A stretch of 64,000 bases of DNA from Chrysoporthe austroafricana. Its lineage: Eukaryota; Ascomycota; Sordariomycetes; Diaporthales; Cryphonectriaceae. Below are positions 8,846 through 36,230 of this stretch, piece by piece. The notes under the pieces were generated by a model. The model was given only the letters and a program-made list of their open reading frames with translations. It had not been told where the DNA came from and ran no database searches. A program made the translations under genes and the position numbers. The stretch is taken from contig JYIP02000002.1 of the NCBI GenBank assembly GCA_001051155.2, positions 379,583 through 443,582 on the forward strand, written 5' to 3'. The first letter of the stretch is position 1, and every line of letters starts with the position of its first letter.

Positions 8846-8892
8846 ATTGCTATAATAAATTAGCAATAAATTATCGATAAATAATTATAATA

Positions 8893-9050: not shown

Positions 9051-9094
9051 AAACCCGATTATGCAGCAAAGGCGTATAAAGCATAGCTACTAAT

Positions 9095-13189: not shown

Positions 13190-14236
13190 CTTATTAACGA
13201 ACAGCTTTAATAATAAAATATAATCTTATATTAATAGCAAAAAGTTAAGAACGAGGTTTTCCGCTTTAATGCTTTCTAGCAAGCTAAAGCTTTCAAGTTT
13301 AATAAGCTTAGACCTTATAAAAGTACTCAAAAAGATTTCTAAGCTTTCTTAATTTAACTCAAAGCTTATTTCAAATACTATAGCGCTTAATTCAGGACTA
13401 TTTACGATTCAATTAATTTCGCGAAAAGCCGCTTTGAAAGAACGGCCTTTTAATAATAAAAGCTAACCTTCCGCAACTATCTGGACAATAATAAGGATTT
13501 CCGTTCTGAAAATATTAAGTGCATTTTTTAGCGCTATGCTAATTTTGAATTAGCTCTTATTAAGACTTTTAAGAACCCGGATAAGAAACGTATTGCAATA
13601 TAGCAATTGGAAGCATTTCGATAAACCGGCTTAACTGCAAACTATATAGCCAAATTTAAACAAATTATCGCTTATCTTAATTACGAAAACGAACTTTTCA
13701 TAAATACTTATTATACGAAATTTAAAGAAAAAGTTAAAGACGAACTTTATAAAGAAAACCGACCCGAAAAACTTAGCAAGTTTATTAATAAAGCAGTCCG
13801 TATCGATAATCGATTTTATAAGCAGTATTAGTAATAATAGAGAAATTATAATAGCATTTCGAAATATTAATTTAATTTAAAGAAATGCAAATTCTAACAG
13901 AAAACCCGGAATAATACGGCTTATTTAAATATAATATATATTAGACTTATAGAATTAAATACTCTATTACGAGAATAATATAAGGGAATTACTTGCTATA
14001 ATTGCGGGAAGAAAGGCTATATTATATGCAATTGCTATTAAGAAAAGAAGAAATGAAATTAGAAACTAATCCCGGAAAGATAAATTAATATTGCTTAGCG
14101 ATAAAAACCCAATTAGCTAAGCAATAATATTTTACCGGAATAAATAATAAACTTTAGCTATAATAGTATAAGCTGGATAGCTTGCTATTAAGACTATTGC
14201 TTATTATACTTTTTAGCAAAAAAAGGTTTAGGATAG
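13190..14236 (+). pseudogene. GYP2 gag with CCHC zinc knuckle, 3' end displaced by solo LTR
   Basis: Ty3/gypsy Gag nucleocapsid/capsid remnant. Readable core: TFKNPDKKRIAI, AKFKQIIAYLNYENE, KVKDELYKENRPEKLSKFI and NKAVRIDNRFY (about 13560-13830), the pattern of fungal gypsy Gag capsid. At 13994-14035 a zinc knuckle reads CYNCGKKGYIICNC: spacing is C-x2-C-x4-x-x4-C, with the His now Tyr (CAT to TAT) and an Arg-to-Cys change, both RIP-type. The C-terminal part, with CY-DYCLLY-like sequence, is split by the solo LTR at 14237 and continues briefly after it. Confidence 0.85.
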
Positions 14237-14683
14237 TATTATAAACGCTGCAGCAATCCTGAGATACGCTATAAAGTTAAAGGTTTATGCTCGCAAGAGC
14301 GGTGCCAAGTATATGCTTTGAATACTGGAATACAATTCATTAAGTATTGCAATATTTATAAGTCTTAAGTAATTATCGATAATGGGGTTTAACTAATATT
14401 TAGATTGATAACTGAAAAGCTATTATCGTTTATTTAGTAAATATCTGATCTTTATATATCTGGTTTTCTCGTCCTATATTGCTGGATTTGCTGGATCTAG
14501 GATAGATCCCCAGATCCGGGATCGGATAGTTCTGTAATAGATTCCCAGATCTTCCCTATTATATACCCTTAACCCTGGCTTACGTAGCAAGGGGAGGGGC
14601 TCCGTAAGTAGGGCTATGGATAAAGTGCTTGCTTGTCCCTATCTTTGCTTTGATATACCCTGTTTCCTTGCTGGGTTATAATA
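14237..14683 (-). repeat. GYP2 solo LTR nested in GYP2 gag
   Basis: 447 bp, opposite in orientation to its host element. The flanks GATAG (14232-14236) and AATAG (14684-14688) are a 5-bp duplication differing by one G-to-A change. It is less AT-rich than its surroundings; its variable block has GGATCTAGGATAGATCC and GATCCGGGATC. Confidence 0.9.
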
Positions 14684-17600
14684 AATAGTTTTTATAGAAA
14701 TTTAAGAAATAAAAGCAATTTGCTATAAGAAAAAAAGGCCTTATTTATAATACGGCTATAAATAGCAATAATTCCGATTATTCAAGCAACTTTTTAAATG
14801 CTAAGGAAGAAAACTTAGAAAAGTTCTTTTTAAACTATTATTTCGAATAATAATAGGATATAATAATAAAAGAGGAATTCGGCATTCAGAAAATAGAAAT
14901 ATTCATACCGAATGCTATGCTCGAAAAAATAATATTGCAAGACAAGCAACTAAATAACTTACTAACCCTTATACTTGAAAAAAAATGCCTTACGGGAATA
15001 AAAGAAATAATTATTTGGAATATAAAGCAAAAATGCTTAAAACGCAATAATTAAATATCCAAATATACGAAAATTAAGCATTTTATTTACGGGCTTATAT
15101 TATAAAAACTCTTTTAAAGCATACCGTTTCAGAATAGCGAATACAAATTTCAAGAAAATAGAAAGATTAATTATTTATACCTTTATTATTATAAACTTGT
15201 TTAGATATGCTATATTTATTATAATTGCTAAATATACTTTAACGAGAAAATTAAATATAATTGGTTTCTAATTAAGGAATAGAATTAATTAATCCAACCT
15301 ATTATAGAATTCCGAGAAAAATATAGAAAAGTTTTGCATATTGAAAATAATAATGCTTATATTAAATTACTTAATAATTATCCGTAAAAATACATTTAAA
15401 GAAAAACGATATAAGAACAATATTATATTATAGCATGCTTTATTTATATGCAAAATAAGGCTAAAGAATAATATTAATTGCAAAAAACCGAGAAAGCAAA
15501 GCAGTATAGCCAAAATTAAATACGAAAGCTAGCAAAACAAGTAGCGAAAAAAGCTTAAAATACCCTAAAAGAGAAAGATTGCTTATAATAAGATAATAGC
15601 CGATTAGGATTACGAAATCCTTATACGCAATTACGAAAGAAAATAAGAAATATATTATATTAAACGCATATATTAACGGGCAACGATATAACGCACTTTT
15701 AAATAATAGCATATAAAGAAATTTTATTTTATTAGAAGTTATTAATAAAGAACAAATCTTTTAAATATAAAAGAAGAATCTTTATAGATTTAATATTATA
15801 GAAAGAAAAGCGGTTGCATATAACTTTAATATAATCGATATAGAAACTGATTACTTATTTATTTCAATTCAAAGCCTTATAATAAATACTACTTTCGATA
15901 TTACAAATACGGCATAATACGAATTAATCTTAAGAATATTTTGGCTTAAGAAATATAATTCTCGAATCGATTGGATTATTAGCTAAATTTTATAAGAATA
16001 AGCCGTATTTATTAAAAAGATTGCAATTAATAGAAAAGGAAAAGTCTTAATTATTAAAGATAGTATTAAGAATATGCGCTTAAATAAGCTTAAATATACT
16101 TTTGAAATAAACGGATTTGCTAAAAAATAAAAAAGGGTTACGAATATTTCAAACTTATAAATATAAATTAAAGATAAATTAGAAATTCAAGCAATTAGCG
16201 ATTAATAAAAGGCTAATTTAGCGCAAAGCATTATAAAGCTATATAAGCTATAGAATTATAAGGAAATACTGCTTCCAAAATAGTAAATACAAAAAAATTA
16301 CGGAAAAAAGTTTAAGTTAATAAATAATAAATACTTAAAGCTACCGGAAATTAAGCCCCGCAAATAACGATAAAAAACGAGCGAAACAAAATATGCTTAA
16401 CAATACCTTTTATTTTTCCAGATTTCAGAAAACGAAAAAATATTATTACTTGAACTCGAAAACGTATTAAAGGAATATTACGAATTCAAGAAATTATAGC
16501 AAAAGAAATTTAATACTAGTTTATTAGAATACGGCCTTTTTGATTATAAAATTCTATTAAAAAAAAGAATAAAATCCCAGAATTATTTTATTTATAAGCT
16601 CGATTAAGCAAAGCTCGAAACATTTAAAGAATATATTAATAAGAATTTAAAGAGAAACTATATACGAAAATCGTAATTATTCGCAAAATACTCGATCCTA
16701 TTTATATTTAAAAAGAACGGCAAATTATAATTTTATATGGATTATTAATAGCTTAACGATATTACGATTAAGAATTGCTATCTTTTATTTCTAATAAAAG
16801 AAATGCGAAATCAATTAATTGGAATAAATTAGTTTATTATATTCGATTTTAAAGAAAGATACTATTATATTCGAATTAAGGAAAATAATATTTGGAAAAT
16901 AGCATTTAAAACTCGTTACGAACATTTCGAATATATAATTTTACTTTTTAAACTAATTAATATACTTGCATTTTTCCAAGAAATAATTAACGATATTTTC
17001 CGTAAATACTTGAATATTATTATTATCGTTTACTTTAACGATATTTTTATCTATTTAAAAGACTTTAAATTATATAAATAGTATATATAATAAGTATTCT
17101 AAATTTTGCAAGATAATAAGTTCTTAATTAAATTAAGCAAATATAATTTCTATTAGCAAAAAGTTAATTATTTCGGTTATACGATAGAATTAAGCAAGAT
17201 TAGCATATAGAAAGATAAAATCCAAATAATAAAAGAATAGCTTATATTAGAAAAAACTAAAGAAATCAAAGTATTTTTCGGCTATATTAACTTTTATTAA
17301 TAATTCATTCGAAATTATAATAAAATCGTACGCTCTTTTACAGATTTTACGAAAAAAGACCGGAAATTCAAATGGATATAAGAAATACAAAAAGCATTCG
17401 ACAAAATCAAAAAACGAATTATATTAAAACTTATATTTTGTAAAGCAAACCTAAATAAGCTATTTAAAATCGAAATCGATATATCGGACTATGCATTCGG
17501 AAAATAACTTGGCTAACGAGATAACCAAGAACGCTTTAGGATTATAAGCAACTTTTCAAAGAAATTAAATAGCCCGGAATTCAATTATAGCATTTCGGAT

Positions 17601-19255
17601 AAAAAATTAATAGCAATTGTAAAAGCATTTAAGGAATAATAATATTATTTAATCGAAACCAAATACCGAATTATAATGCATTCCGACTATAAAAACTTAA
17701 TAATATTTATAATAATAAAGGTTTTGAATAAACGATAAGTTAAATAAGCGAAATTCTTTTTATAATTTAATTTAAAGATTATCTATTGCAAAAAATCTGA
17801 AAATGGCAAAGCAAATATATTTAACAGATAATCAAATTACTAATATACAAAACTTAAAGAGTTCCAGAATATCTTTTAGTAAAATAAGGATAATAATTTT
17901 GTAAATAAAGCTAGGGAATTCAATACGATTATCAGAATTTCTAATAATAGAAAAAAATCAGAAAATATAATTACGGAAGAATAGAACGAATATATTAGAA
18001 ATATATATAATGCATTCGCATACGGCTATCAAAGAGTTAGAGCTATATATAAAAAGATTAAGAAATATTAGAATTTTTTAAGATTAAAAAAAAGGATTAA
18101 AGCAATCTTACGAAAATACGATAGCTGCAAGAAGAATAAGATTAAATATTATAAGCCTTATAAACTATTCTAATTATTTCCCGTCCCAAAAACAATTTGG
18201 CAATCTATTAGCTAGGATTTTATTACTAAGCTACCCCTTTTACGAAAACCTTTAACTAAAATACAATACGATAATATTTTAATAATAGTTTGTAAATTAA
18301 GTAAATGCGCTTACTTTTTCCTATATAAAGAGAGCAGCATAATAGAAAACTTTGTATATACATTTCTTAGAACGGTTATAGCCAATTATAATATGCTTAA
18401 AGAAATTATTTCCAATAAAAATAAAAAGTTTGTATTAAACTTTTAAATTTTACTTATAAAATTATTTGGAATATAGCAAAAAATATCTATAGCATTTTAT
18501 TTATAAATAAATAAATAAATAGAAGGGATAAATTAAATTATTAAATAATATTTACGATATTATATAAATTATAAATAAAATAATTGGGTTAATTTGCTAT
18601 TATTAATACAATTCGTATATAATAGCGCAAATATAAGCATAATAAAAAAATTACCGTTCTATACGCTTTATAGCTATAACCCGATAGCTTATTATAACGA
18701 ATTACTAAGAACAAATACAAAAGCAGCAAAAAAACGAATCCGGAAAATTAAAAAAGTCTAAAAAGAATTTTAGAAAAAACTGAAATTTATACAAGAAAGA
18801 ATAACGAAATATACCAATTCTAAAAAGATTGAAAAACTAATCCTATAGAAAAAAGATAAAATCTATTTTATTTGACAAAAAGAGCATATTAGAATAATAA
18901 AACCCTTTTACTCGCTAAATTATAAGAAACTTAGCCTATTCAGAATTCTAAAGAAAATCTTAAATATTAATTTCAAACTTGCACTACTTTATAGAATAAG
19001 AATCTACCCGGTATTCCATATTTCGTTCCTCAAACTAATACTTAACGCAATCAAAACGGACAAATCTATACAAATCGAAACTAACAAACTGGAATACAAA
19101 ATCGAACGGATTCTTAAATATCAGAAATTAATTAAAGATAAGGAATATCTGATTAAATAGAAAAGATATTATTTAAGCGAAAACAATTAAAAACCAGTTA
19201 GCAACTTAAATAATGCATAATAAGCATTCAAAAAATATTAAAAAAAAAGCAATTA
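14684..19255 (+). pseudogene. GYP2 pol (RT, RNase H, integrase, chromodomain)
   Basis: Domains in order on the plus strand. End of gag and a weak protease-like stretch (to about 15800). RT 16600-17100, with WKIAFKTRYEHFEY and VYFNDIFIYLKD at about 17020-17060 (YLDD changed to YFND). RNase H 17455-17705, with FKIEIDISDYAFG, KKLNSPEFNYSI and IIMHSDYKN. Integrase zinc region 17990-18170, ending CKKNK. Integrase core 18200-18520, with W-D-F-I, a damaged SDR-G-KF block and a T-A-F-Y-P-Q-T motif. C-terminal chromodomain 19090-19250, with YKIERILKYQKL and EYLIK. Stops throughout are mostly TAA/TAG at Gln or Trp positions. Confidence 0.88.
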
Positions 19256-19326
19256 ACCAATTAACCAGAAGAATAATTAGAAAGATCCGGGATAGCCTTA
19301 TGCCTTACGGTTAAGTTAATAGCAAA

Positions 19327-19890
19327 CTAGTTAATACTAAAGCCAAACTGCTATAAGGCAGCATTCAGATCGAAACTTTCGGGAAAAAGGCTTTTAAGGA
19401 TTAAGGTTTCCAAAACGCGATATTCGGTCCCGGTCTTGCAACGCTCCTCTTCCGCCTTTACTGCTTCCAGCCGCTCCAATTCTTCAATAGTATCCAGGCC
19501 CCGATATACCGCGCAAGCCATTTTCTCGGCCTATAAACGATGCTATTTCCGTAGCCGAAAAACTTTCGCATTAGCTAATATCGCTTCCTTTTTAGCAGCA
19601 TCCAATTCCGCTTTAACCTGGGAATGCTATTTCACGATCCGCTATATTTGAACGGGAATAAGGCTTGCTATATCGCAATTACCGCGCTTGCTGCAAATAT
19701 ATTTAGCATAACGCGAAAAATCCTTTTCCGAAGCGTAATAGAAAAGATTACGATCCGAATAGAAAGAATATACAAGCATTTCAGAATAGCGAGAAAAAAC
19801 CGTAAGCCAAAGAGTATTGCTTTAATCTGTTTTCTTATAAAAGCGTTTTTCGACTTTGCGAAATATCCTGATTAGGAAAGGGATATTAGA
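19327..19890 (-). pseudogene. GYP2 antisense ORF (about 185 codons), coiled-coil-like, 3' of pol
   Basis: Opposite-strand reading frame between pol and the 3' LTR, broken only by TAG/TAA at Gln positions. Readable blocks: LTVFSRYSEMLVYSFYSDRN, LFYYASEKDFSRYA, then a charged helix-like part, AELDAAKKEAILANAKVFRL and LDTIEELERLEAVKAEEE, ending FPESFDLNAAL then FGFSIN and TAG. The helix resembles coiled-coil tails seen in small fungal proteins of unknown role; I cannot assign a function. A second copy lies at 58150-58711 in the same position relative to its LTR. It is clearly less AT-rich than pol, and its start codon was not fixed. Confidence 0.65.
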
Positions 19891-19940
19891 AAAAAAGGGT
19901 TAATAAAAGCCTTATAGAAAATTATTAAGGATAATAATTA

Positions 19941-19955
19941 ATAAGAAAGGGATAA
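19941..19955 (+). promoter_or_regulatory. GYP2 polypurine tract
   Basis: ATAAGAAAGGGATAA abuts the 3' LTR. The second GYP2 copy has GAAAGAGGATAA at the same place (58084-58096, minus strand). Position and purine content fit the primer for plus-strand synthesis. Confidence 0.6.
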
Positions 19956-20403
19956 TATTATAACCTAATATAGGAATAGCTTGCTAATATACCGAAAAAG
20001 CAAAGAAAGCCAATAAGTTAGCTTATATAACAACTCTATTAAGGAATACTTATAAGGATTGCATAATCCAAAGTTAAGGGTTGGACCGATAAAATCGCTA
20101 TTAATCTTAACGGTCTTATATGGACTGACGATATCGATAACGGTCTTATTAATTTAGAACTGAAAAGCCGGATATATAAGAACAGGACATTTATTAAATA
20201 GATTACTATAGCTTTTCAGTCGTAAATTTAAGTACTACTTGAACCCTATTATACTTTTAAGTAATAGCCTTATAAGCTTATAAATATTGCGAACGTTTAT
20301 TAAACAAGTTTCCGGTATATAAAGCTATATTTGGCACCGCTCTTATTAATATAAACCCTTTGACCTTACAGTTTATTTTAGGATTACTATAGCGTTTATA
20401 ACA
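19956..20403 (+). repeat. GYP2 3' LTR
   Basis: 448 bp, TATTATAACC to AGCGTTTATAACA, followed by the TTAGC duplication. It carries GATATATAAG at 20171-20180 and a variable block at about 20080-20160 with CCGATA/TATCG repeats. That block is longer than in the 5' LTR, which explains the length difference. Confidence 0.93.
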
Positions 20404-22005
20404 TTAGCCAATTCCGCATATAGGATTTTAAAAATATAACAAAAAGGCGTATAATATCGCTCGATCTTGCCGATCAACCAGTATATTTCGATAAGGACTT
20501 ATTTGCACGTAATATTTATAATCTTCGCTTCTTTACGGAATCCTGCTAAAGCAAAATTAATATTAGTATCGTATATAATTCGGTTTAATAATCCTTGATA
20601 TATATCAATCCAAAGCATTCGAAAGGTTTCTTAAATATCTTTTGCTAAAATCGAAATAAAGAAATAAGCGCTTTAGAAAGCTATAAATATATTAATTACG
20701 TAAAAAACTGGGCGCTTGTTAAAATATATTATATTTACGAAAATCTTATAATTGAACTTACAATCGTCTTTAAAGGTAAACTTGAATCGTTTTAGCGCTA
20801 GGATATTTAGCTAGCAATAATAGCAAAATTTCATAATCGAATCCAAAATAGCTCGATTAGTATTACTATGCTTTGCTTTTTCAAGAAAGTAATATAGGCG
20901 GTTAGCAATAAAGTATCCAAAATAGCAATAAAGACGCCGCAATTCTATCTCGTTCAAAAAGACGCTCGTTCTTTTAGCCTTGTTAAAAAAGAATTACGGA
21001 TAGCCTTATTTGCATACTACTAGTACTACCGTATTGCTATAAATAAGCTCGTTTGAAATATTATTGAAATAAACGCCCAAACAATTTATATCTATTAAGC
21101 ATAAAAGGAAAAGGATTGGTATTTCGAATATATAGAATATAATCGCGCTAATAGAAGTTATAAGGTTAATAAAGCCGATAGAAAATGCAATCGTTCCTTT
21201 ACTAAACTTGATTTTAATATAGCTAATTTCAGAAATATTAATCTGGAATAATAGGTTCTTGCATTTCAGAGCAAAATATTAGTTTTTCTTTGCTATTAAT
21301 ACCGTTACTATACTTGTATTAAGCAGAATGCTTTGAAAACGAATATAAGAGTATCGGTTTTCAATTATAAACTAATTAGCTAAAGCTTCTAAAGTTTTAC
21401 TGAAAATATCGTTACCCGTTAGCTAATAAATAAAAGTTTAATCAGTTAAGTATTAAATAATAATAGCATTATTATTCTTATTATTTGCTTCTCTTTTTAG
21501 ATAGAAAATATCGCCTTTTTCGTTATTGTCTAGCTTATAACTTTCGTAACTTGCTAAGAAAATATTAAAGCTGCTTGCTAGAATATTAATAAAATAATAT
21601 TGGGCCGTATATTATATACGGGCATATCGATATTCTTTTACAGAGTATTTCGTAAATTAGCAACCTTTATAATTGCAAATAAAGCATTTCTTTATTTATT
21701 AGCAAATATATTAATATATGCTTTTTCGTCCGCAAAAACTTCTATAGCCTTATTAATTGCTATTATAACGACAATCAAAATAATACTGCTTTATATCGTT
21801 TTGAATAAAAGTGCTTAATATTAATATACGGCTAAAATATATTTTAATAGCTAAACGAAAGTTAGCAAAAAGCTTTTCGCTTTTATAAGCTAGCTTGAAA
21901 AGTGCTATTTCGAGCTCTAGAACTTTACGGCAAGCTCTAATAACTGCTATTTTCAGGCTATCTTCGCCTTAATAATTAATACTTAAAGCTCGTTAGCATA
22001 ATTAG
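20404..22005 (-). pseudogene. COP1 protease/integrase region
   Basis: Minus-strand Ty1/copia pol. The pre-integrase/zinc part reads SVFLNEIELRRLYCYFGYF near 20870-20990 (family: 'LTDTELRQLHRRFGH'; both His now Tyr). Downstream in sense, near 20410-20560, INITCK and IGKIERYYTPF match the integrase 'SITCKEVPVEAHWSIGKVERYHAPLRRAY' block. The frame continues into 12304-12655 after removal of GYP2. Upstream it meets GYP1-B at the ATTAG duplication (22001-22005). The protease motif itself was not clear to me. Confidence 0.82.
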
Positions 22006-22212
22006 TAATAATAAACGTATTAAAATATATTCTAAAGCATCCTCTTTCCAAAAAAGTAGATTATGCTAAAGCTTATTAAGGCATTATATAAGCCCCCCGG
22101 TAAGGGTATAGCATTTATCTAGTAAATTCACTGCATATTTACTAGGGGATTTACTATAAATTTACTAGGCAAATCCATTACGAATTCATTTTATTTATAA
22201 GTTTTGCTATTA
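22006..22212 (-). repeat. GYP1-B 3' LTR (207 bp)
   Basis: TAATAATAAACG to TTTTGCTATTA on the plus strand, equal in length to the 5' LTR at 32455-32661. On the inner side the sense strand reads ATAAGGGGCCGGCAAT, a G-rich purine stretch that is the likely polypurine tract (22213-22229). Confidence 0.93.
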
Positions 22213-22406
22213 ATTGCCGGCCCCTTATAACCTTTATCTATAAAAGAAGCTAACTATCAGAAATATCTTGAATAACAGTAATACGATATAATAGGACTCT
22301 AGGTTATACGGCAAGGAAAATTACGATAATACTATTGGATAAAGGAGATTATATAGGAAATAACAATCGTTTCATAAAGCCGACTCGTGCCAGAGTCCTA
22401 ACAGGT

Positions 22407-22485
22407 AAACGTGCTTATGCCGGGAACTTGAATAACAAATATGCCCATGCCGGGAATTAAAAGAAAACCTGCCTATGCCGGGAGC
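22407..22485 (-). repeat. Short repeats ATGCCGGGA in GYP1-B 3' region
   Basis: Three units with the core (T/C)ATGCCGGGA, about 29 bp apart, lie between the end of ORF2 and the 3' LTR. Copy C has RIP-decayed counterparts near 36605-36695. Function unknown. Confidence 0.6.
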
Positions 22486-22519
22486 TTAGAATTAATCTTC
22501 TATTATAATCGGTTTATAC

Positions 22520-24727
22520 TTAGGGTAAATAAATATGTATAGTACTTATATATAATAAGGCTGGCCGATATCCAAATATATTTCGGTAATGCTTAATCGT
22601 ATTTATTGCCGAAGTATTTGGTATAGATATAACTAAAGACCAAAATTGCTTGTAGATATTAGTAGAAAGTATAGCTTTCAGATAATAGGATATTAAGTAA
22701 GTATAATAATAGTGAATATAAAATGAAATTACGATAAGATATATCGGTATATAGAGCTGATAGCCGTATATAATTATTATATAGCAATATTGTAATCAGT
22801 TTTCAATATAAGTAATTAAATTTATAAATTATTAAAAGAAAGCAATATTATATGCTATTAATAATATTATATCGATAAATAATAGCTATATTTATTAGTT
22901 AAGAATAATTTTCCAGGCTTTAGCAATAATTTCAAAATTTAATAAGTTATAAAGAAATATAGCAAATAGTTTTTCTTTTCCAATATAATTGCAGAAATCG
23001 GTATAATTATAGATATTAAGCTATAAAGTTTTGATTAGCTTATACGTTTGGATATAGGATTTGAAGCTTATTATGCGATTTTAATATTGCAAGAACCGGG
23101 CAGCGCTAAAGTAATTTTTGTTTTCGTTAACCTATTTCTGAAAAGTAATATTGAAATTGTAATCTATATCGTCCTTAATGAAAACGATTTTAATAGCTTT
23201 GAAATCGTATTCGAAACGGAAGATTTGGTTTATAATAAAATATAAGCCCGACCAGTTAGATAAAATAATAGGATTAAAGTTACGGAACCAAATAACGAAT
23301 TCATATATATATTCTCTTATAATAAAAGGGAAGAAATACTAGATACGATTATTATGGATTCCGATAATACCAAATTTAATATTATTATAAATAGCGAAAC
23401 TATTAGTAACGTAAGGACGGTTAATATTAAGGTTGCTTTTCCAGGTAAAATTATAGCGTATATATTCTTTGGATATATAAAGGGCTAGCGTATAGTAGTA
23501 TACCGCAATTTCGGTTTCAATAGCTTTGGATTTGGGGTTATATTTGATAGATAAGGCGGGAATAGCGCAAGGCATAGCCCGTAAAGGCAAAATGCTATTA
23601 ATACTAGTTTGGAAAGCTTTGCTTAGTATAGCTAATAGATTAGCTATGCTTGGTAAGTTATTTTCGGTTAAGTCGATAGTATTATCCATAATTCAATAGC
23701 GCTTGGCTAGCATTATGAAATTTCGTTCTATTATAGCAAATAGGCTTAGATTAGCGACTGGCATAATAGGCTCGAAAATCTTAAGCTTGGCCAAAACTGG
23801 CTTAATATTCTTGGCTATTTTCTTCCAAGTAGTAAGGGTTATATTACGATTATATTTGTAAATTATAACGACTTTTGCTATATTGGCTGTATAATATACG
23901 GTATTTACTTCTTTTTTAGTAAAATTGTTATAATTGCTTAATATTATCTATTTAGCTTTATCTTTAATATAACGGCTATATTTATTTCGTAAGCGATCGT
24001 CTTTCGATATTATAATAGGAAATAGGATATAATAAGCTATTAATGGAATATATAAGGCAAAGATAAGATTACGAATAGTAAGTAAATTCGGGATAAATTC
24101 AAGCAATATTCCTTTAATAGAATTATCCGTTAATCTATTATTTGTATCCTTATTCGTAATAGTATCCGTATTAATAAAGGTATTTGGATAAAGCTTTTAT
24201 CTTTCGTAAATAGGATTAAAGCGGTCAATTTATAACGGTATAGGGTATTATAAAATAAGTTCCTAAGCTTCTTTAATAGCTAATGGCCGATTAATATTGC
24301 TGCTATTTAGCTCGGTATTGGGAATATAAATATTATATTCGACCTTTCGGTTTATTATATTAATATAACCTTTATTAATTAGCGCTTGACAAAAGGCTAT
24401 TATATAAGCTTCTTAATAACGAAAGAAATCGTTCAAATAGTTTTTCGTTACGTAAATATTATAGTAGAAACGGCTTTCGCTATTATATAAGTATATAGCC
24501 TACCGATATCTTTCCAGGGAAAGGCAGTCTTTAAGCGATACCTTATAAATATATTTAGCATATTGTATAATCTTGTTTTTTCAGCAAACTTTAAAAAGTT
24601 CCTTTTAAGATATAGGGTATAATACCGCATAAAAGTTAAGTATAGCTAAACGTACCGTTTTTTATCAATCTTAATCTTATAACGAAACATTTATAGAAAA
24701 ATACGACTTAATAATTACATAATGCAT
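22520..24727 (-). pseudogene. GYP1-B second ORF (ORF2), about 735 codons, between pol and 3' LTR
   Basis: A single reading frame without a frameshift runs from ATG at 24727 (MHYVIIKSYFSINVS) to TAA at 22520, ending SALLY-like then IHIYLP. Interruptions are only TAA, TAG and TGA codons of the RIP type. Blocks shared with other copies: SLKDCLSLERY, NDFFRY, NRLTDNSIKGILLEFI, FAIIERNFIMLAKRY, MDNTIDLTENN, KYNPKSKAIETEIAVYYYTL, KFGIIGIHNNRI and FNPIILSNWSGLYFI. I do not recognise the family. No signal peptide or clear membrane anchor is evident, and RIP inflates hydrophobic residues. Its position is that of env in errantiviruses, but nothing else supports an envelope role. Confidence 0.72.
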
Positions 24728-25039
24728 TTTGGTTTTAATAATATTAATAGCTTTATTAATATAATCCTTACGGGTTTACGGAAGCTTAGCAGAATAAAGC
24801 GAAATTGATAATAGTACTAGCTTAATACTCAAAAACAGTATTCAAAAATATAATGAAAAGTAATAACGATAGGGCAATACGGCTAGTTATAATAAGTAGA
24901 TAAAGATAATAGTCGTAAGCGCGCTAATAAGAAAAAGAAAATAAAATAAATTCATTAGCGGTTTACGAAATAATAGCCTTTTGCATTTGCTAAAAATTTA
25001 TTTGCCTTACCCAGCAATTGCTTTTACCCTAATGCGCGC

Positions 25040-28000
25040 TTATTGCGTTGCGGGTTTTTTCGGTTTCTTGGAACAAGTAAACTAACTTATTCTAGTATAT
25101 TTTCTGTTCGTAAGTTGCGTTTTGGCTTGCTTTGTTTTCGTAAGGCAGTTACGATAATATTTCCCGGTTTAGGGATTTCTTCTGCTAGTAGCCGCTTTCG
25201 CTTTGCTCTTTCTTGCAATTCGGCTATAGCTTCGCATTTCCGTTCGAAATTATATATTATTTCGTCCGCATTCAGGGCATTACAGGGTATCCATATATTA
25301 TAATAGCTAGAATAGTTTATCCATTTTACCAGGTATTCAATTCTGCGCAAACTATATTTATACTTTTGCTTATAGCGGCTAATTATCTTTTCCAGCTCGT
25401 AATATCGGTAGTTTTCTAAATATTTTTCGATATTCAGATCTTCTAGCATATTTACTGAATCCTGGTATATAAAGTTATATTTATAGAAATCCATTTTAGA
25501 AAAGTTTGCAAGTATTAATTATATTACCGAAATTATTAAATAGATATTTATATAAAGAACCAATTTCAATTTATATGCTAAATTCTTTATTTTTCGAATA
25601 ATTTGGAAAAATCTTATTCTCTATTATAAAAACTTCAAAAATAAGTTATTTAGCAATAAATACCCGTAGCCTAAGCGAATATATACTTAATTATCTAATT
25701 CGAAAATTATCTGGCAATAATGCTTATTATATTGCAATTTGGCTATTATTTGCGTTTTAGTAATGAAAAGTTAAGCTTCTTTCTAGAAAACTTCCTTTGC
25801 TAAAAGTATTATATCCTTTATTTACTAGCCCGATAATAGGTTAAATCCGAATAGCATTTGGCTAGCTGAATATTTTATAGCTTAATTATATATATTATTC
25901 AGATTAAATTGTAATGCTAGTATTATCTCGGTCTATTTTGTATTAGAATAAGCGGTTATAAAATGCCGAATTGCTATTTTAACTACTCGATTCTTTATTT
26001 CAGATTGCCCGTCCGTTTGCGGATACGAAGCAGTAAAGTAGGCAAGTTTCGTTCCGATAGCTTCTTATAAATATTTCCAGAATTCCGATAGGAATTTCGA
26101 ATCTCTATTTAAAATAATCCTTTTGGGTATTCTCTAGCTAATAATATAAAGTATCCGTAAAATAAGGATTGCTTAGTCTATTGCAATATATATTGCATTG
26201 CTTAATATAATAATTATAGTTTTGGAATACTTATCCGTAATCGTAAGAAATGCATCCAAGAATAGCATTTTAGCCAAAGCTTATATAATATTTATAAATA
26301 ATATTATCGGTAATTCTATAATAAAGTCTATAATAATAATATAGAATAAGATTAATAAAGATAATATAGGCTGCATTTCTTTTAAGAGTTATTATAAGTC
26401 GTTTTTATTTTCGTTATAGGCTCGATATATCGATATATAATTGCGTATTTTAGCATAATAATATCTGATAACAAATCGATCCGTTAAGTTATACTATACG
26501 CAATTTATGCCGAAATAATATTTTCTATCGTAAACTTCTTTAATGAAATCCAATATTATTTCATTCGGGATATATAATCGTTATTTCCCGTAATAATCTT
26601 TGAAAAATAATAAGCTATTATAATTTAATATGAAAAGTAGTCGGGCAATTTTGTTTAAGTCTTTTAATTATTCGATTATTCTGGACTATAAGGGGTATTT
26701 TTCGTATCTTTTCTTGATACGCCTTTTTATTTCGCTATTTATAGATATTTTATTAAAAATTTAAATAAGTTTGTTTTCTTATATCTTATTTAAAATGCCC
26801 TTATCGTTAATAGGTTTCTAGGTAAATAGCAATCTTGATATAGCATTTGCAAGAACGTTCGACCTTTCCAGTATATAATATACTTTTAGATCGAATTGGC
26901 TTAAGTATTCCGAAACGAGAATTAGCCGTATATTTGCCTTAATCTTATTTACCGTATTTATAGATAACGAATGGATAATGCTAACTATTATTATATAATC
27001 AGTAAGGATATAAACTAGCTTGATTCGGTTCGATTCTATTATCGTCTTTAGCTTTCGCATTAATTATATTAAATAAGCTATTTTTAGCTTTATAAGCTAA
27101 TACTTTCGTTTTGCTTTATTAATTATCTTGCTTAAATAAAGGATTGGTTATACGGCTATACTTGCTATTAGCGATATTCCGTTCTATATATAATTGTTTG
27201 CTAATTGGAAAATAATGCTTGAAAACCCTATTTCTTTAAATATATCTAGCTGAATAAAGAGAAGTTTGTCTGAAATATAGTAAAATAAAGCATTTTTAGC
27301 TTCTAAAGCTATTTTGAAATCGTAAAAACTATTAATTTCGTCTAATATTGGGTCGAAAGTAGCTTACGTAATATAATTTCGCTATCTTATATCTGAAAGT
27401 AAATAATTCGATTAGCAAGCCTTATTTAGTATTCTAATTTTCTTTTTCTGAAATAGATTAATTCTATAACTATATTTAGGAATTAAATAGCGTAAGTATT
27501 CTGTAAATCCGATAAACTTTTCCAGTTGCTAGAATATTTTGAGGAATTCTAGGTTGCGAATGGCTTGCATTCGGTATTCCGTATTGGAAATTCCGAATCC
27601 GTCTACTTTAAATCCTAAGATTTAAACTGAAAAATATCCAAAAAACGATTTGGGTCTAGCTAATGAAATATTTTTGCATAAAAATAGCGAGAAGATAGTT
27701 TGTAAATATCGTAAGTAATCTTATTTTATAATTGAATAAATAATAATATTATCTATGAAAGCGGAAGCAAATTTGTAATATAGTCGTAAGAATTGATTTA
27801 TAAAATGCTGGATATAGGATAATGAATTTCGAAATCCTATAAATAAAATTTTTATCCTTTCTTAATTATAATAACTAATAACGGTAAATCGGTCTTTATA
27901 GTCTAAATATATTAAGAATTGATAGAAAAATTGCTATGCATTTACTATTATAATATATATTTTTCCTCTTAGCTATTTAATAACTTCTTGCTATAATAGC

Positions 28001-31000
28001 AAGGAATAAGTATTAGGAACTGAAACTTTATTTAAAGCGCGTAAATTAATTATTATATATCCTTTTTTCTGGCTATTTATATTCTTCCAAATTATAAAGA
28101 TTAGTAAACCGAATAGTATTGCATTTATAACCTATTCAGCTCGATTTTGCTAATATAACTTATCCAAAATTTCGTTAATTACTTCCTGGTTTTCTTTATT
28201 TGAATAGTATAGCTTTTATCCTATTTTCTAGTTTTGCTATTTTTTAATTAAGTCGACTTTTATTTATTAGTCGATTAGCATATTAATAGGATTTATATTT
28301 TTGAAAATTCTAGCATATGCTTATATTAATTCTATAACTTTATAGAAAAATTCCGGTAAATGCTTGCAAACGTATATACCGAATTTAATTTCCAATTTCT
28401 CAATAGCTTTATCTTTCCGGATCCTCAGTTTATTACTGTTTTCGAAATAATCTCTTATTTCGGGAATTTCTATATCCGGAAATCGGTATTCTTCCAGTTA
28501 TTTTCCAGTAATTTCCGCAGTTTGTTGGAAAATATACTCAATGAATAATAATTAATCTGAATTTAGCTTTCCTAAAAGCTATAACCTGTCCTGGGTTTAT
28601 TGAAAGAAATATTATCGCGCGATATAATAATAATTGTCGTAATTCGCTAGCGGGGTTATATAATTTGTCTGGAATAATTCGATTATCCTTAGAAATTGGT
28701 TTTTCTGGATTCTTAAAAGGGTTGCTGCTTGGTTCGTTACTAAGACCTTTTTAATCTGATAGCCTATTAAGCAATTTATTTACTCTTTCTGTTTCGGTTT
28801 GAATAAAAAGGTTACGTTTTTGGGATTCGCTTAATATTAATAAGGATTAGCTTATAATATCTAAGCAGTATTATTATAATAATTGCAGCTTTTGCTTGCC
28901 GGGATCGTATTAATATTCGAGCAAATATTTCTACTTTTATTATTGCATTACTAAAATAATCAAATCGTATAAACGATTCTGAATTCAGAATATCTAGTTC
29001 GTAAAGAATATTATATTCCTATCTTAGCAAGATATTTATTTCTAATCGATCTAATACCCAAGCTTTTATTCGAGTACGAAATATAACTGAATAGCCGTAC
29101 TTATTATTTTAGAAATATAAGTCGAATTCAGCTTAGCCTTTTGCTAGCAACTGGCTTATACCTTTAAGCTTGGCTTTTACGTTCCAGTTTACTTTTGCTT
29201 TAAAGAACTATACTAGCAATTCCTTAGTAATAGCATAACGACTAACGCTTATATCGATATAGATTTCTATATTTAGCCTATTCGGGTATACTCTAGTTGC
29301 AGCTCTTGCATATATATAGCTGCTGCTCTAATAAGGCTTAACCGTAAATATAGGAATATTATATTCCAAGATTTCTCCTTTCCATATATCGATTTTGGGA
29401 AAATTTTATAGCTAATTGAATGGTTATATAAGGTATTTAATATAGAATATGCTTTTGTCTACCGATAATTTTACTTTTTCGGCTCGAAAAATCTAGATAT
29501 CGTTTTCGATTATTACGTTTTCTTTATTAGCCTATTCTTCCAATTCGTCCTTTTGCCTCTATAGGTTTTCGTTATTTTCGGTCTTTTTATCGTATTTATC
29601 GCTATCCGTTATAAACAAATTATTATTTACAGAAAAATAGCCTTTTCGAGCCAGCTTATCCTTTTTATTTGAATTATATTGCAATTTTCTGTTATCGATA
29701 TTAAAGTTTGTTAGGGTTAATTGAACAAAATGTCTTTTAGCATCTTTTCGTACAAATTAATAATAAAAGCGCAATTGGAAGTTTCGGTTTTTTAAAATTG
29801 AATTTTTACTATTATCCATAATATTGGTTAATATCTTCTTAGCCGTATTAGAAATATTTTGTTATCTGGCTATCCGTTCTTATAATTAGTTCCGAATGTC
29901 TATTAGCTTTCGCTATTATTTTAATAAGAGCTTTCGGAATTCGTATTCCGGGATATATTCAGTACCTTTAGATAAATTTGGCTAATTAAATATCCTTATT
30001 AAGCAAAATGAATATTCAAATCCTTAAGGCCTGAATCTTCCAGAGCGTTTTAGGAATATATTAGCTAGGAAGTAAATATTAATATTGGGGAAATTGGCAG
30101 CCGATTGCATAACTCTTTATACCGGTTGCGCGGGTTTACGAGATAGTCTTATTACGCAATCTGATTCGAGGATATGCTATATCTCTTATTTTGCTTTAAG
30201 ATATTTTTCGAAATCTTTTGCATTCTCATTTCGACTAGGTTTATCGAAATATTTAGCTATTAGTTCTTTATCGATCCGATCCCAAATATTTCTAGCCAAA
30301 TACGAATTTGGGTATTCGGCTAGCTTAATAAATTGACAGACGTAATAAGTAAATTTCAAAATATTGCGATTATTTCGTATATTTTTCCTGGAATATTATT
30401 AAGCATTTAGCAAGTTTTTTGCAATTTTCCGCAATATAAAGAAATCTCTTTTTAACCACTTTTTCTATTAGCTCTAATTATGCTTATGCAAAATAAAATC
30501 CTTATGCTTTTAGGAAAATAATATAGAATAGAATTAAGTATATACTATTCTAATTAAACAAGCGGGTAAATAGAAACTGAAATATTTAGCGCGTTTTGCA
30601 TTTCTGGTTATATATATTTTATATTGATTTATAAAAGCTTGAAAGTCTTTCCAAATAATAATTTTATTATTTATAGTAAATACGATTATTAAGTTAGCAT
30701 AGTTATTTTAATTTTCGTAAAGTCGGAATTGCTTTATAACCGTATCTTTGAATTCCCTATTAATACTAACGGGTAATGCTATGGGTTTAAGTAAATTAGG
30801 TCGATAAGCTTGGAAATCCTTGAATCGCTTATAGCCGAATAATAAGTTTCGAGAACTATTGCTTTTATTATTGCTAGAATCTGATAAATCCGGTAATCTA
30901 TCTGGCTTATTAATTAGTTTTTTTTGGAAATTAGAGTTAATTTCAATATCCGGTTCGGGACCCGAAAATAGTTTTTGGTCTGGTTAACTTCCTATTCCTA

Positions 31001-32185
31001 ATATAAATATTTGCTAGATACGTTCCTTAATATCAGGAAATGCCGGTCTAATAAAGCGATATCCGTTGCTAGCGTAATATTTCGCGGCCGAAATAGGAAA
31101 GGGTTCCTTAATAGGTTCCGATTAAAACGCTTGCATATTAAAAGCTTATTGCAATCGGAACATTTTTTTGAACTCAATACGTATTGCCTTTTCCGAGATA
31201 AAGCCGTTTTGGTAGATTATTTTTATTTCGGGTCGCTATAAAAACTGGTCTAATAAGCTAGTAATTGGGAAAAGAAGGGTCGGATATTTCTGAGAGATAG
31301 TAATAAGATTGTCCGATTTTTCTTTATCCAATCTTTTTTCCTTATAGTTTTCTTCCCCGAAAAGCTGCAAATAGTCCGATAAATCCGGTTAGGGCATTAA
31401 TATGCTTTCTGCTATAAAGTTTATAAAATTGGCCGGGATAGCTGCAATAAAACCTTATTTAGAAATATTCCGACTCTAAGTTCCCGTTAAGAGGAAAAAA
31501 ATATATTTATTTTCTAGAATTAATTATTTTCTTTTGCCTTTATTTATTTTTCTTACTATAACTAAAAAATTCCCGGATTTATCGGTAAATCTAGGATTTA
31601 AGTTTTCGGTCGAATATCGTAATGGATAAATATACTTAATTCCGCTATTAATATTAGTATATTCAAATATATAATGCTTTCGATTTTCGATAAATTATTA
31701 CTAAGCCAATTTTTCTAACGGATCTTTCGGATTACTAAGTCGAAAGGTATTCTCGCTCTCGTTCATTTTTATAAATACTTATTATTATTCTTTTTCCGTT
31801 ATCGTTTCGGCAAGCTATTAGAATTTGCGATATTTGGAAAAATCTTCTCAGAACGTATTATTCTTTCCTATTTATTAGGATAGATTCTTATCGAAATTCG
31901 ACTTTCTTCCCTCTTAAGTCCAGCGTTTAAGCAATAAAGGCTATCCTTGCTTAACTACTTATGCCTTTGCTTTCTGCAAAAGTGCATTGGTTTCCCTAAA
32001 GTTCTATTTCGCTTTTTCGTATCGATCGGCCAAAAGTTTCCAGTTAACGAAAGCGCATGCGATTTCGAGAAAGATTTTGATATCCGATATAACCCAATCC
32101 TTCCTCTCAAAATCGTTCAAGGCTTGTATAAACTTATATACCTAAGCGGGATACTTAATCTCGATATAATCGATAAGCCGCAGTA
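25040..32185 (-). pseudogene. GYP1-B gag-pol, non-functional
   Basis: Gag opens near 32185 with LRLIDYIEIKYPA, then ALNDFERKDWVISDIKIFLE. It runs about 2.9 kb to a protease site near 29220-29250. RT carries FASAFIDNIIIYSI at about 27733-27770 (second Asp to Asn). RNase H at 26818-27060 reads IIESNRIKLVYILTDY and YLSQFDLKVYYIL...SNVLANAISRLL. Integrase lies at 25750-26640 and includes the HPQT-D-GQ-like site near 26010. The chromodomain at 25270-25430 reads YYELEKIISRYKQ, YLVKWINY, then NIWIPCNALNADE. No CCHC knuckle was seen. Confidence 0.87.
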
Positions 32186-32252
32186 ATAAAATATTATTGC
32201 TAGTAATTGCTATAATGAATTAACGATAAATTATTAATAAATAATTGTAATA

Positions 32253-32410
32253 TTTCTTATAGGAACGCTATTTCTATAAAGGCCGATATCCTACAGGACC
32301 GATATTCTTACAAGAGCCGATACTTTACAAAGCCGATATTTTTACAGAAGCCGTTATCCTATAGGACCGATATTCTTATAAGAGCCGTTGCTTTACAAAG
32401 CCGATAATCG
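32253..32410 (-). repeat. GYP1-B leader tandem repeats (CCGATA units)
   Basis: Eight or so units of GCCGATAT..TTATA/ACCGATATTCTTATA, less decayed than in copies D and E. They lie between the primer-site-like sequence and the start of gag. Confidence 0.78.
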
Positions 32411-32440
32411 AAACTTGATTACGCAGCAAAGGCGTGCAAA

Positions 32441-32452
32441 GCGTAGCTACCA
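32441..32452 (-). promoter_or_regulatory. GYP1-B candidate primer binding site
   Basis: Two bases inside the 5' LTR the sense strand reads TGGTAGCTACGC, beginning with TGG as expected for pairing to a tRNA 3' CCA end. The position in copies D (near 40837) and E (near 48443) is the same but RIP-altered. The tRNA is not identified. Confidence 0.5.
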
Positions 32453-32454
32453 AT

Positions 32455-32661
32455 TGATAGTAAACGTATTGAAATATATTTTGAAGCATCTTTTTTCCAA
32501 AAAAGTAAATTATGCTAAAGCCTATCAAGGCATTATATAGGCTCCCCGGTAAGGGTATAGCATTTACTTAGTAAATTTACTGCGTATTTACTAGGGGATT
32601 TACTATAGATTTACCAGGCGAATCTATTACGAATTTACCTCGTCTATAGGTTTTGCTATTA
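32455..32661 (-). repeat. GYP1-B 5' LTR (207 bp)
   Basis: TGATAGTAAACG to TTTTGCTATTA; the intact TGATAG start shows the original terminal sequence. It is followed by the ATTAG duplication. The sense strand has CCTATATAATGCC (about 32529-32541), a TATA-like core promoter candidate. Confidence 0.93.
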
Positions 32662-34137
32662 ATTAGAGCTTATTTAATATTATCTGGAAAGCTTTACGAA
32701 ATCCCTTTTTAAAGTTTTCTTGGCATATCTTAGCGAATATTATAATCGTCCAGTCGGTATAATAATAGTAATAGTTTATTTTTATATCGAAATGGATTTT
32801 AATCTTTATATATGCTATATAGAAATTATCGTTTCTGCTAACGTATTGAAAGTAATACGCTAAAGCTCGTCCTGTTAATATATAAAAGAATACCGCATAA
32901 AACTGGCTTGGTTAGATCTTTGCGTAAAAGCAAATATTAAAAAGGAGCTTTATCTTATCGTTAAGGAAATCGTACGGTTTGCTAATATACTTTTGGTTTC
33001 GGTTAAAAGTTTTTGCGAACTATATTACTTTCTAGAAATTTAAGCGTTCATTCGGTACTGGTTATAGAAAGAGCGTATTATAAGCATTATATAGTTCGTA
33101 CGCTTATAGCTTGCAGCTAAGCTAGGCTTATAATGCTATAAAAGGTTTATTTAAGGCTTGCTAATTGCTTAAAAGTATTGCTTATAAACGCTCTCTTATT
33201 AGTTCCAGGATAATTAAAAGGGATAGGGATAGTACTCGCTAAGCTAGTATTCTTTCTTCTTTAAGCTATTAGGAAAACTATTTGGATTGGGCTTTAATAG
33301 CTCGCATTATCCTTCCTTAATTTTTGCAAATAGCTTATTATTATTAGTATGCCCGGCTTTCAAATTCGAATATCGTTATTGCTATTTCTGCTTAGTCCCA
33401 TTTAAAAGGGTTTTCTCTCTGCAAGAATTCAGTAAGCTGAAAGGCTATACGGCCGTTATTACGCCCTATATAAACGCTTCGTTACTATAAGAAATGCTTG
33501 AAAGGACGGCGATAAGTATTAAGCACGCTTTCGAATATATTCTAGGTCTATCTTTCGAAATTATCGCAAAAAGCGTAAAAGAGATTATCGTTAAATAGAT
33601 GCTCAGAAATATAAGTTCTTATCGTTCTTGCTATTATCGTAACAAGCTAAGCTCTGTCTAATTCTTTTATAACTAGGTTAGTCCAAGTAATTAGGTTAAT
33701 TATATCTTAAAAGGATTTTTCAATTCGAAATCCTTCTATTAGGGCTTCTAGTTAAAGGGTGCCGTTATCGTTAGCTATTATAAACCGGCTAAACGGTACG
33801 TGCTATATAGGTTTAGCTATATAGCTCGTTTGTATATTATTTATTTCTTATGCGTAATGAACGCGTATTTCGCTTGCCTTGGAAAATATAACTTCGATAG
33901 TTAGGGAGGTTCGCTAGCAAAAGAGATCTTCTTTAACAGTCGCTTAGAGAGTCTGGTTTTCTACAGGGAAGTCTGAAAAAGCGATTGCTAATATTTAGTA
34001 TAGAATGCCTTGTCGAGAGTAAGCCTTACGCGTTGCTAGCGTTAACCGCTAGCATTGCGTAAAACTTAAACAAGTTTTCGAAATCCTATCTCTTTAACCT
34101 AGCTATCTATAATTACCCAAAGGCAATTACTGATCAG
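32662..34137 (-). pseudogene. COP1 gag region and leader
   Basis: Sequence between the COP1 5' LTR and the GYP1-B insertion. By position it must be the leader and gag. The minus strand gives only short readable pieces with many stops, such as NYRSYIFQGKRNTR near 33880-33930. I could not place a zinc knuckle with confidence. It is noticeably less AT-rich than the gypsy copies, fitting a lower copy number and so less RIP. The assignment rests on context more than on motifs. Confidence 0.55.
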
Positions 34138-34332
34138 TATTGGCTGGGCTTAACTACGTACGTAGTGAATCGGTTTCGATTTGCTATCTGTTATTATATC
34201 TTATCTGTCTAAAAGGAAGGAAGGAAAGAAAGCCGTGGGCAATAGCCAGAGCGTAGAAATAGCTTTAGCCCTAGCGCACGGGCTATATCCTAGCCCGTGC
34301 TTATATACTAAAGTAAACAGCTCTATTTTATA
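34138..34332 (-). repeat. COP1 5' LTR
   Basis: 195 bp, TATTGGCTGGG to TTTTATA, followed by AATAC (34333-34337). On the sense strand a TATA-like AGTATATAAG (34301-34310) is followed at once by the perfect inverted repeat GCACGGGCTA / TAGCCCGTGC (34276-34300, 5-bp loop). Confidence 0.93.
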
Positions 34333-34337
34333 AATAC

Positions 34338-36230
34338 AATATAATAAAATAATTCAATATAATATAATATAAATAATCCAATTAATTACTTTGCACTTTA
34401 TAAAATCCTTTATTCCTTATTTATTTACTCTATTATATATGCTAAAAACTTTATAGCTTTCTTATATTATATAATAAAACTTTAAATTAAAATTAAATAA
34501 AATTAAATCGGGAAATTAATTTGAATTTAAAATGCAAAAATAATATTAATATTTAATTATTGAAAAGTTATAATGATATTATAATAATATTATTTCAAAC
34601 TTTTTAAATATTAAATTTTTGTATTAAAATATTATTTATTAAAATATTTTTAAATTTATTATTATTAGCTTATTTATACGATATTTTATAATAAAATTAT
34701 AATAGCTTTATTTAAATAATTTAAAAAAGTTTTTATATATTATATAATTTTAAATAATTATTGAATAATGCTATATATATATTAATTTATATATGCAAAT
34801 TTATATTAAAATAAGCTTTTTAAAACCGATTAAACCGATTGCAAAATATAATAACCGAAACGAAATTTAGCGGAAAAATTATGAAAAAGTCGAAATATTT
34901 TTTATTAGCTTTTTTAAACTTTTTGCAAAAGAATTATTAAAATAAAATAAAAAAACCGGAATTAAAAATAAAATAATTCAAATATTTATAGCAATTTTGT
35001 ATTTATATTAAGTTTGAAAAAATTAATAATAGCTAAATTATAATTTAATAAAAATATTACGAAAAATATTTATTTTAAACTTTAATTTTATAAATCGGAA
35101 AAGTAATAATAATAATAATAATATTAATTAAAGCAAAAGTTTTAATAAAAAATAAATAAAAAGCTTATAAAATAATAGCTAATAATATATTAAATAATAA
35201 AGCTTTTAATAATTATTTTATATATATTAAAAATAGCTTTTATAAATTAATTGAAAATAAATATAAAAATATTTTTAAATATTATGCATTTGAAAATATT
35301 AAAATAGAAAAAAAAGCAGTACTGCAAAAAGATTACGAAATAATTATATAAAATATAATAAAAATAAAATAAAAAATTGCGTAAAGCTTGCAAAAATATT
35401 ATATAATAATAAAAAAAATAAAAAACCAATAGAGAATTAGTTAAAGTTTATTAAAAAAATTAAAGAAAGAAAGAAAAAAAGTAAAAAAAGAAAAAAAGTA
35501 AAAAAAGAAAAAAAAAAGAAAAAGTAATAATTAATTAAAAGTATTATAAAAAAATAGCTTAAATACTTTTATAAAATATTATAATTTTTTATAAAAAAAT
35601 TATATATATATATAAATATATATTTATAAGCGATATAAAACTAATAAAATTATAATATTATAATAAAATAATAATATAATAATTTTAATAAATAATTAAT
35701 AAAAATATTTAAAATAGTTTTAAAATAGCTTTTAAATTTTTAATAATATAATAAAAAGTTATTAATTTATTTATTTATTTTTTATTATATAAATTATAAA
35801 TTTTATATTATAAATTATTTCTCTTTTATTTAATTAATTCAAATTATTTTTTGTATTTTCAATAATATTATAATATATTTTATAAATATTATTTTTATTA
35901 TTTTTATTAAAGTTTTTTTAAAAAAGTTATTTTATTTTATTTTAATAATTTTAAAAAGCTATTAATCTTTGAATATATTAATATTATTATTATAATAACT
36001 TTATTGTTTTTTAATATAACTTATATATATATTTATATAATAATATACAAACCTTTTATATTAAAATTAATAAATATAAAACTTTTAAAATAATATAAAT
36101 ATATATTATTATTTATTTTTAATATAATATTATAATTTATAACTTAAGAAAACTTTATATATATATAATAAAATAAATATTATTTAATTATTTAAATTAT
36201 ATATTTAAAAAAATAATTAATATTTTTTAT
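34338..36230. other. Extremely AT-rich spacer
   Basis: About 1.9 kb made almost only of A and T, with poly-A/T, (ATA)n and an AAAG/AAAAAG-rich purine tract at about 35455-35530. The few short open frames are low-complexity Phe/Tyr/Ile strings and not credible genes. I see no LTR ends, retroelement motifs or RNA genes. It is poorer in C and G than the RIP-mutated elements around it, so it is either older, more fully mutated sequence or native AT spacer. It would originally have joined the spacer at 9302-9725. Confidence 0.75.

What the first reader, a model, noticed from the sequence alone, without database searches (positions are those of the whole stretch)
22520..24727. A 735-codon second ORF in the envelope position of a Ty3/gypsy element
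Copy B carries, between the chromodomain end of pol and the 3' LTR, one same-strand frame of about 735 codons with no frameshift and only RIP-type stops. Fungal Ty3/gypsy elements normally end at integrase/chromodomain. The ORF makes GYP1 unusually long (10.66 kb). I cannot match it to a known family. It could be an env-like gene, a captured host gene or an accessory replication factor; position alone does not decide.
Basis: partly seen in the sequence, partly recalled or inferred. Interest (0 to 1): 0.85.

Follow-up and report, generated by a model that had tools for sequence, protein, structure and literature searches.

The report
Extra gene in a fungal retrotransposon
A heavily mutated fungal jumping gene carries, besides its usual genes, an extra gene near its end that seems to have been kept intact by selection while the family spread; it resembles no protein we could find, and although extra genes in this place are known in other retrotransposons, what this one did is open.

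Summary
Copy B is a minus-strand Ty3/gypsy element (22006-32661, 5-bp TSD ATTAG), and a long same-strand frame lies between the pol chromodomain and the 3' LTR. It is the element's third ORF, not the second. It belongs to the family: 61 copies scored, 59 over the whole frame; 40 of 40 scored matches span the pol/ORF3 junction. It looks truly coding. Codons 45-753 have no net indel in 32 copies. All-copy stops are as rare as in gag and pol, and 3-4 times rarer than in the other forward frames there. Shared non-RIP differences are 4 of 5 synonymous (16% expected). Corrections: the ATG at 24727 was probably made by RIP (13 of 30 copies read ACG); the frame is 753 codons and the likely start is codon 45 (24643), giving about 709 aa. 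Pfam, NCBIfam, PHROGs, PDB, a 5.8-billion-protein set, IMG/VR and plasmids gave no relative; RIP damage makes that a weak negative. The AlphaFold model is useless (pLDDT 28). No signal peptide or membrane anchor stands out, so env is unlikely. Best reading: an intracellular accessory factor, as CERV of Cer1 is. Extra ORFs in this position are a known kind.

The parts
22006..32661 (-). Ty3/gypsy element, copy B (10,656 bp)
   Evidence: LTR pair; identical 5-bp flanks ATTAG at 22001-22005 and 32662-32666; RT, RNase H and chromodomain hits
22006..22212 (-). 3' LTR (about 207 bp)
   Evidence: the two LTRs differ at 26 of 208 sites compared, all transitions
32455..32661 (-). 5' LTR (about 207 bp)
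28765..31465 (-). ORF1, gag-like by position (approximate limits); no domain hit
   Evidence: lowest stop density in its frame; no Pfam hit and no PDB hit
27604..27858 (-). pol: reverse transcriptase (part)
   Evidence: PF00078 E 5e-4 in copy B, 7.6e-5 in another copy; 4-copy profile hits Ty3 RT 4ol8 at 1e-14
26977..27153 (-). pol: RNase H (part)
   Evidence: PF17917 E 0.004 in copy B, 4.9e-6 in another copy
25237..25401 (-). pol: chromodomain
   Evidence: PF00385 E 6.5e-5 in copy B, 5.7e-8 in another copy
22517..24775 (-). ORF3 frame, 753 codons between stops; probable coding part 24643-22517 (709 codons), terminal TAA at 22516-22514
24641..24643 (-). Probable start codon of ORF3 (codon 45)
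   Evidence: ATG in 13 and ATA in 17 of 30 copies; the all-copy stops at 33, 37, 38 and a 62-bp deletion at codons 22-43 shared by 2 of 32 copies lie upstream

Best explanation
ORF3 is the third protein-coding gene of a chromodomain Ty3/gypsy retrotransposon. It was intact and under selection when the family spread, and was then destroyed copy by copy by RIP. Shown: one long frame, joined to pol in every scored junction, with coding-type constraint. Inferred: it is not an envelope but an intracellular accessory protein of about 709 residues. Because it lies after pol in another frame, behind a stretch with stops in all three frames, it was probably made from its own spliced or subgenomic mRNA, and it acted on the element's RNA or particles (for example nuclear export of the genomic RNA, as CERV does for Cer1) or on host silencing.
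For: Family-wide: 61 copies scored out of 256 first-look candidates, 59 over the whole frame and two from codon 42-43 on; 40 of 40 scored matches (of 205 candidates) cross the pol/ORF3 junction. Openness: stops present in all of up to five copies, per 1000 codons, are 17.4 in ORF3 (element 7890-9100), 10.0, 26.8 and 16.7 in three pol blocks, 10.0, 33.4 and 23.4 in three blocks of the gag-like frame; the other two frames of the same blocks have 23-84, and in each block the coding frame is lowest. No net indel in codons 45-753 in 32 copies. Five transversion sites are shared by 2 or more copies; read codon by codon 4 are synonymous and 1 is not, while 16.3% of possible transversions are synonymous (binomial p about 0.003, worked by hand). 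Not env: hydrophobic peaks (19-residue means at most 2.07) stay below those of pol pieces (2.16-2.53). Precedent: CERV of Cer1 (PMC10309623, abstract and passages); bdelloid ORF3s (PMC5408684, abstract).
Against: The role rests on analogy. No homologue and no usable fold. Five stops after codon 45 are present in all 30 copies, so an interrupted master, an intron or read-through cannot be excluded. Only five shared substitutions carry the selection test, and the synonymous share was worked out on a RIP-mutated copy. The ORF3 peaks do exceed those of the gag-like frame (1.47). No transcript data; splice sites were not tested.
Confidence: 0.55

Rival explanations
1. An envelope-like gene: ORF3 made a membrane fusion glycoprotein.
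For: Position between pol and 3' LTR; size about 709 aa; 8-13 NxS/T-type motifs in three less-mutated copies against 1-4 in three pol pieces, though 7 in the gag-like frame; peaks up to 2.07 near residues 238 and 623-629, above the gag-like frame's 1.47.
Against: No hydrophobic stretch after codon 45 that would serve as a signal peptide (judged by eye on the reading) and no membrane peak above the pol control; no match to a known env; fungal walls make an envelope an unlikely tool (general knowledge).
Confidence: 0.1
2. A captured host gene carried as cargo or turned to the element's use.
For: Large, separate frame behind stops; captured domains such as dUTPase are known in fungal chromoviruses (PMC2864245, section 5).
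Against: No hit in Pfam, NCBIfam, PDB or the protein set. The own-genome searches score only about 60 best places, so a diverged host paralogue would not be seen: this is not a test.
Confidence: 0.2
3. A protein gene of another mobile element that inserted into the master copy and was carried along.
For: Size and lack of relation to the gag-like frame and RT.
Against: No inverted repeats of 40 nt or more in 19300-34500 (shorter ones were not sought); constraint during the family's spread.
Confidence: 0.1
4. Not coding: a stop-poor stretch in a very young, RIP-only family.
For: Copies differ almost only by transitions (1119 transition-only sites against 9 purine/pyrimidine sites), so lack of indels is partly youth; the pre-ORF spacer also has no net indel; eight all-copy stops.
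Against: Stop density equals gag-like frame and pol in the same copies, while the other two frames of its block are 3-4 times higher (52.1 and 69.5 against 17.4); 4 of 5 shared transversions are synonymous; net indels occur in the 3' stretch and LTR (8 in about 500 bp, in 5 copies) but not in pol or in ORF3 from codon 45.
Confidence: 0.05

Closest known systems
Fungal Ty3/gypsy elements with an 'add. ORF' of unknown function (Novikova et al. 2010, PMC2864245; passages, section 5 and Fig. 3 legend read; figure and supplement not seen)
   Same: Fungal Ty3/gypsy elements with an additional ORF of unknown function
   Different: Which elements, where the ORF sits and its sequence could not be compared
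Cer1 / CERV of C. elegans (PMC10309623; abstract and passages read)
   Same: Gypsy/Ty3 element; large ORF between pol and 3' LTR that does not resemble env and has no obvious homology outside Caenorhabditis
   Different: Nematode; expressed; the ORF is the C-terminal half of CERV, made from a spliced mRNA and required for genomic RNA export, none of which was tested for ORF3; no sequence comparison made
ORF3s of bdelloid rotifer LTR retrotransposons (PMC5408684; abstract read)
   Same: Third ORF after gag and pol, various non-envelope kinds
   Different: Those described have recognised features (GDSL esterase/lipase, DEDDy exonuclease, one paramyxovirus-type env, smaller ORFs with transmembrane domains)
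Retand additional ORFs of plants (PMC11963269; abstract read)
   Same: Long pol-3' LTR region with ORFs of unknown function
   Different: Antisense to gag and pol in Retand; sense here

Membership tests
Ty3/gypsy chromovirus (chromodomain LTR retrotransposon) | LTRs with target-site duplication | tested here: met
   (copy B)
Ty3/gypsy chromovirus (chromodomain LTR retrotransposon) | Ty3-type RT and RNase H | tested here: met
   the two best profile hits are Ty3 entries
Ty3/gypsy chromovirus (chromodomain LTR retrotransposon) | Integrase after RNase H, chromodomain at its C-terminus | tested here: met
   H2C2 (weak, E 0.008), SH3_Tf2-1 (E 0.0005) and Chromo (E 5.7e-8) in that order in two other copies; the core integrase domain gave no hit in the pieces scanned
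Ty3/gypsy chromovirus (chromodomain LTR retrotransposon) | PBS and polypurine tract | not tested
   not examined
Retroviral/errantiviral env | Signal peptide and transmembrane anchor | tested here: inconclusive
   none above the pol control, but RIP distorts hydropathy and only a Kyte-Doolittle scan and reading by eye were done
Retroviral/errantiviral env | Sequence homology to a known env or fusion protein | tested here: not met
   no Pfam, PDB or protein hits; weak negative because of RIP
dUTPase-bearing fungal chromovirus | dUTPase domain | tested here: not met
   no Pfam dUTPase hit in ORF3
Retand-type additional ORF | Antisense to pol | tested here: not met
   chromodomain and ORF3 are on the same strand
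CERV-like RNA export factor | Made from a spliced mRNA, nuclear, needed for genomic RNA export | not testable with these tools
   needs transcripts and experiments

The most novel reading that the evidence does not exclude
ORF3 founds an orphan protein family by which a fungal Ty3/gypsy element controls its own RNA (export, packaging) or resists host silencing: a CERV-like accessory gene, for which the paper searches made here showed no fungal example.
Probability: 0.15. Interest if true: 0.7.

Novelty: new member of a known kind. Interest (0 to 1): 0.42.

Why it matters
If the role is right, fungal LTR elements, usually seen as gag-pol only, have evolved accessory genes of their own, in a setting (walled cells, RIP) where an envelope makes little sense. 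It would also show that RIP-destroyed families hide whole genes from ordinary annotation.

Tried and rejected
Pfam on ORF3 of copy B and of 16 copies: only Tom7 (best E 0.045, 2 of 16 copies) and Head_binding (E 0.14, 1 of 16), below their cut-offs and taken as chance. PHROGs and NCBIfam: nothing at E 0.1 in 16 copies. Three protein-set searches: nothing; whether the set holds fungal proteins was not controlled. PDB by sequence and by profile: nothing. IMG/VR: 529 pattern matches, none confirmed. Plasmids: none. AlphaFold on window copies only: pLDDT 28, all 736 residues below 50, so no fold search was run. Relation to the gag-like ORF1 or to RT: none (hhalign probability 0.1 each). Relation to the minus-strand frame at 19301-22004: only blastp hits of E 0.03 or worse without composition correction, rejected. 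Sensitivity control: with RIP damage RT itself gives only 20-23 bits in Pfam, and the gag-like ORF1 gives no Pfam or PDB hit; so missing hits for ORF3 tell against a domain about as well kept as RT, RNase H or chromo, and little more. Gap events: one search counted 6 in ORF3, 2 in the spacer, 3 in the 3' stretch, 5 in the LTR and none in pol; two searches showed that those in ORF3 and the spacer are compensating pairs, i.e. alignment artefacts, and left 4 net indels in the 3' stretch and 4 in the LTR. Single-copy transversions in the frame: 4 in the MAFFT alignment, 10 from codon 45 on by BLAST; the surplus probably comes from those artefacts, and singles carry no weight in the argument. The MAFFT alignment of the pol flank is noisy (61 gap runs) and was not used for pol. 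In one search the blocks 300-1200, 3900-4800 and 7500-7935 were counted too (lowest frame 23.4, 36.7 and 20.7 per 1000) but not used as coding controls because the coding frame there is unsure; the last ORF3 block (67-68 codons covered) gave 0 in frame and 14.7 and 117.6 off-frame. L038 proved to hold only a part of its element and was not used. Copy number beyond 61 is not established.

Full report
Setting. The window lies in a 48.15-Mb genome in 22 contigs (G000:C12), is AT-rich (GC mostly 0.20-0.34) and full of diverged repeat copies. That the host is a filamentous ascomycete is inferred from the RIP-type mutations and the element types; it is not named.

The element. Copy B is a minus-strand LTR element, 22006-32661, with LTRs of about 207 bp and the 5-bp duplication ATTAG on both sides. 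Its LTRs differ at 26 of 208 sites, all transitions. Pol carries RT, RNase H, H2C2, SH3 and chromodomain in that order, each weak because of RIP (copy B: RT, RNase H and chromodomain only; two other copies). A profile of four damaged RT-RNase H pieces finds Ty3 RT (4ol8) at 1e-14, so the element is Ty3/gypsy. A gag-like frame precedes pol in another frame; its label rests on position only, as no domain was hit.

The extra frame. The 512 nt before the frame, which include the last codons of pol, have all-copy stops in all three frames (2, 4 and 7 of 170 codons). Then comes a frame of 753 codons closed by a TAA in 30 of 30 copies. Three of the eight all-copy stops (codons 33, 37, 38) and the 62-bp deletion shared by L014 and L024 (codons 22-43, 2 of 32 copies) lie upstream of codon 45, which fits a start there.

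It belongs to the family. With the frame as query 61 places were scored out of 256 first-look candidates; 59 cover it from residue 1-2 to 733-735 and two start at 26-27. Copy number is thus a lower bound. All 40 scored matches (of 205 candidates) to a 1.6-kb query across the pol/ORF3 junction span it.

It is coding. Using up to five copies (at least four per codon), stops present in all of them number 17.4 per 1000 codons in ORF3 (element 7890-9100), 10.0, 26.8 and 16.7 in three blocks of pol, 10.0, 33.4 and 23.4 in three blocks of the gag-like frame, and 23-84 in the other two frames of the same blocks; in each block the coding frame is lowest. The last ORF3 block had only 67-68 codons covered (0 in frame, 14.7 and 117.6 off-frame) and was not used. 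Over 30 copies ORF3 has 50 stop sites (8 in all copies), the other five frames 69-143 (24-63 in all copies). From codon 45 on, no copy of 32 has a net indel; nor has the pol piece or the spacer, while the 3' stretch and the LTR have four net indels each, in five copies together. Variation is almost pure RIP: 1119 transition-only sites against 9 purine/pyrimidine sites. Of those 9, five are shared by two or more copies, four of them synonymous; of the four single-copy ones, one is synonymous, two are missense and one is nonsense (codons as listed). Transversions are synonymous in 16.3% of possible cases, counted on one RIP-mutated copy. This fits selection on the protein while the family spread and none after insertion; the numbers are small.

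What it is. Nothing matched in any library. That is weak evidence, because the gag-like ORF1 is equally silent. It does tell against a domain about as well conserved as RT, RNase H or chromo. The fold prediction from window copies failed (pLDDT 28). Hydropathy peaks near residues 238 and 623-629 (at most 2.07) do not exceed those of pol pieces (2.16-2.53), though they exceed the gag-like frame (1.47), and by eye no signal peptide is visible after codon 45, so an envelope is unlikely though not excluded.

How it may work (inferred). A gene after pol in a third frame, behind stops in all frames, needs its own mRNA or internal initiation. [quoted passage not shown]). I take an intracellular accessory role of this sort as most likely; no step of it has been tested for ORF3.

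Known or new. [quoted passage not shown] I therefore file it as a new member of a known kind.

Noticed in passing
15003-19302 (+): A second, different gypsy pol on the plus strand: RNase H E 6e-18, SH3_Tf2-1 and H2C2 weak.
   Followed up: partly
19301-22004 (-): A long stop-poor minus-strand frame, probably of another element, no Pfam hit; by eye part of it recalls a GAG-pre-integrase region (recalled, not tested).
   Followed up: partly
14231-14480 and 20151-20409: A repeat of about 250 bp in inverted orientation at the two ends of the region with the second gypsy pol; related copies at about 11861, 12807, 37981, 57348, 57648 and 60956. If these are LTRs, their opposite orientation needs an explanation.
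   Followed up: no
32266-32401: Imperfect 34-bp tandem units in the 5' leader of copy B next to the LTR.
   Followed up: no
36227-40634: Another copy of the same element family is interrupted inside ORF3, at about 37981-38395, by a stretch that includes the 250-bp repeat.
   Followed up: no
35001-36000: An extremely AT-rich kilobase, GC 0.082.
   Followed up: no
L014, L024: Two copies share a 62-bp deletion at codons 22-43 of the frame, just upstream of the probable ORF3 start, perhaps a sub-lineage that spread with it.
   Followed up: partly
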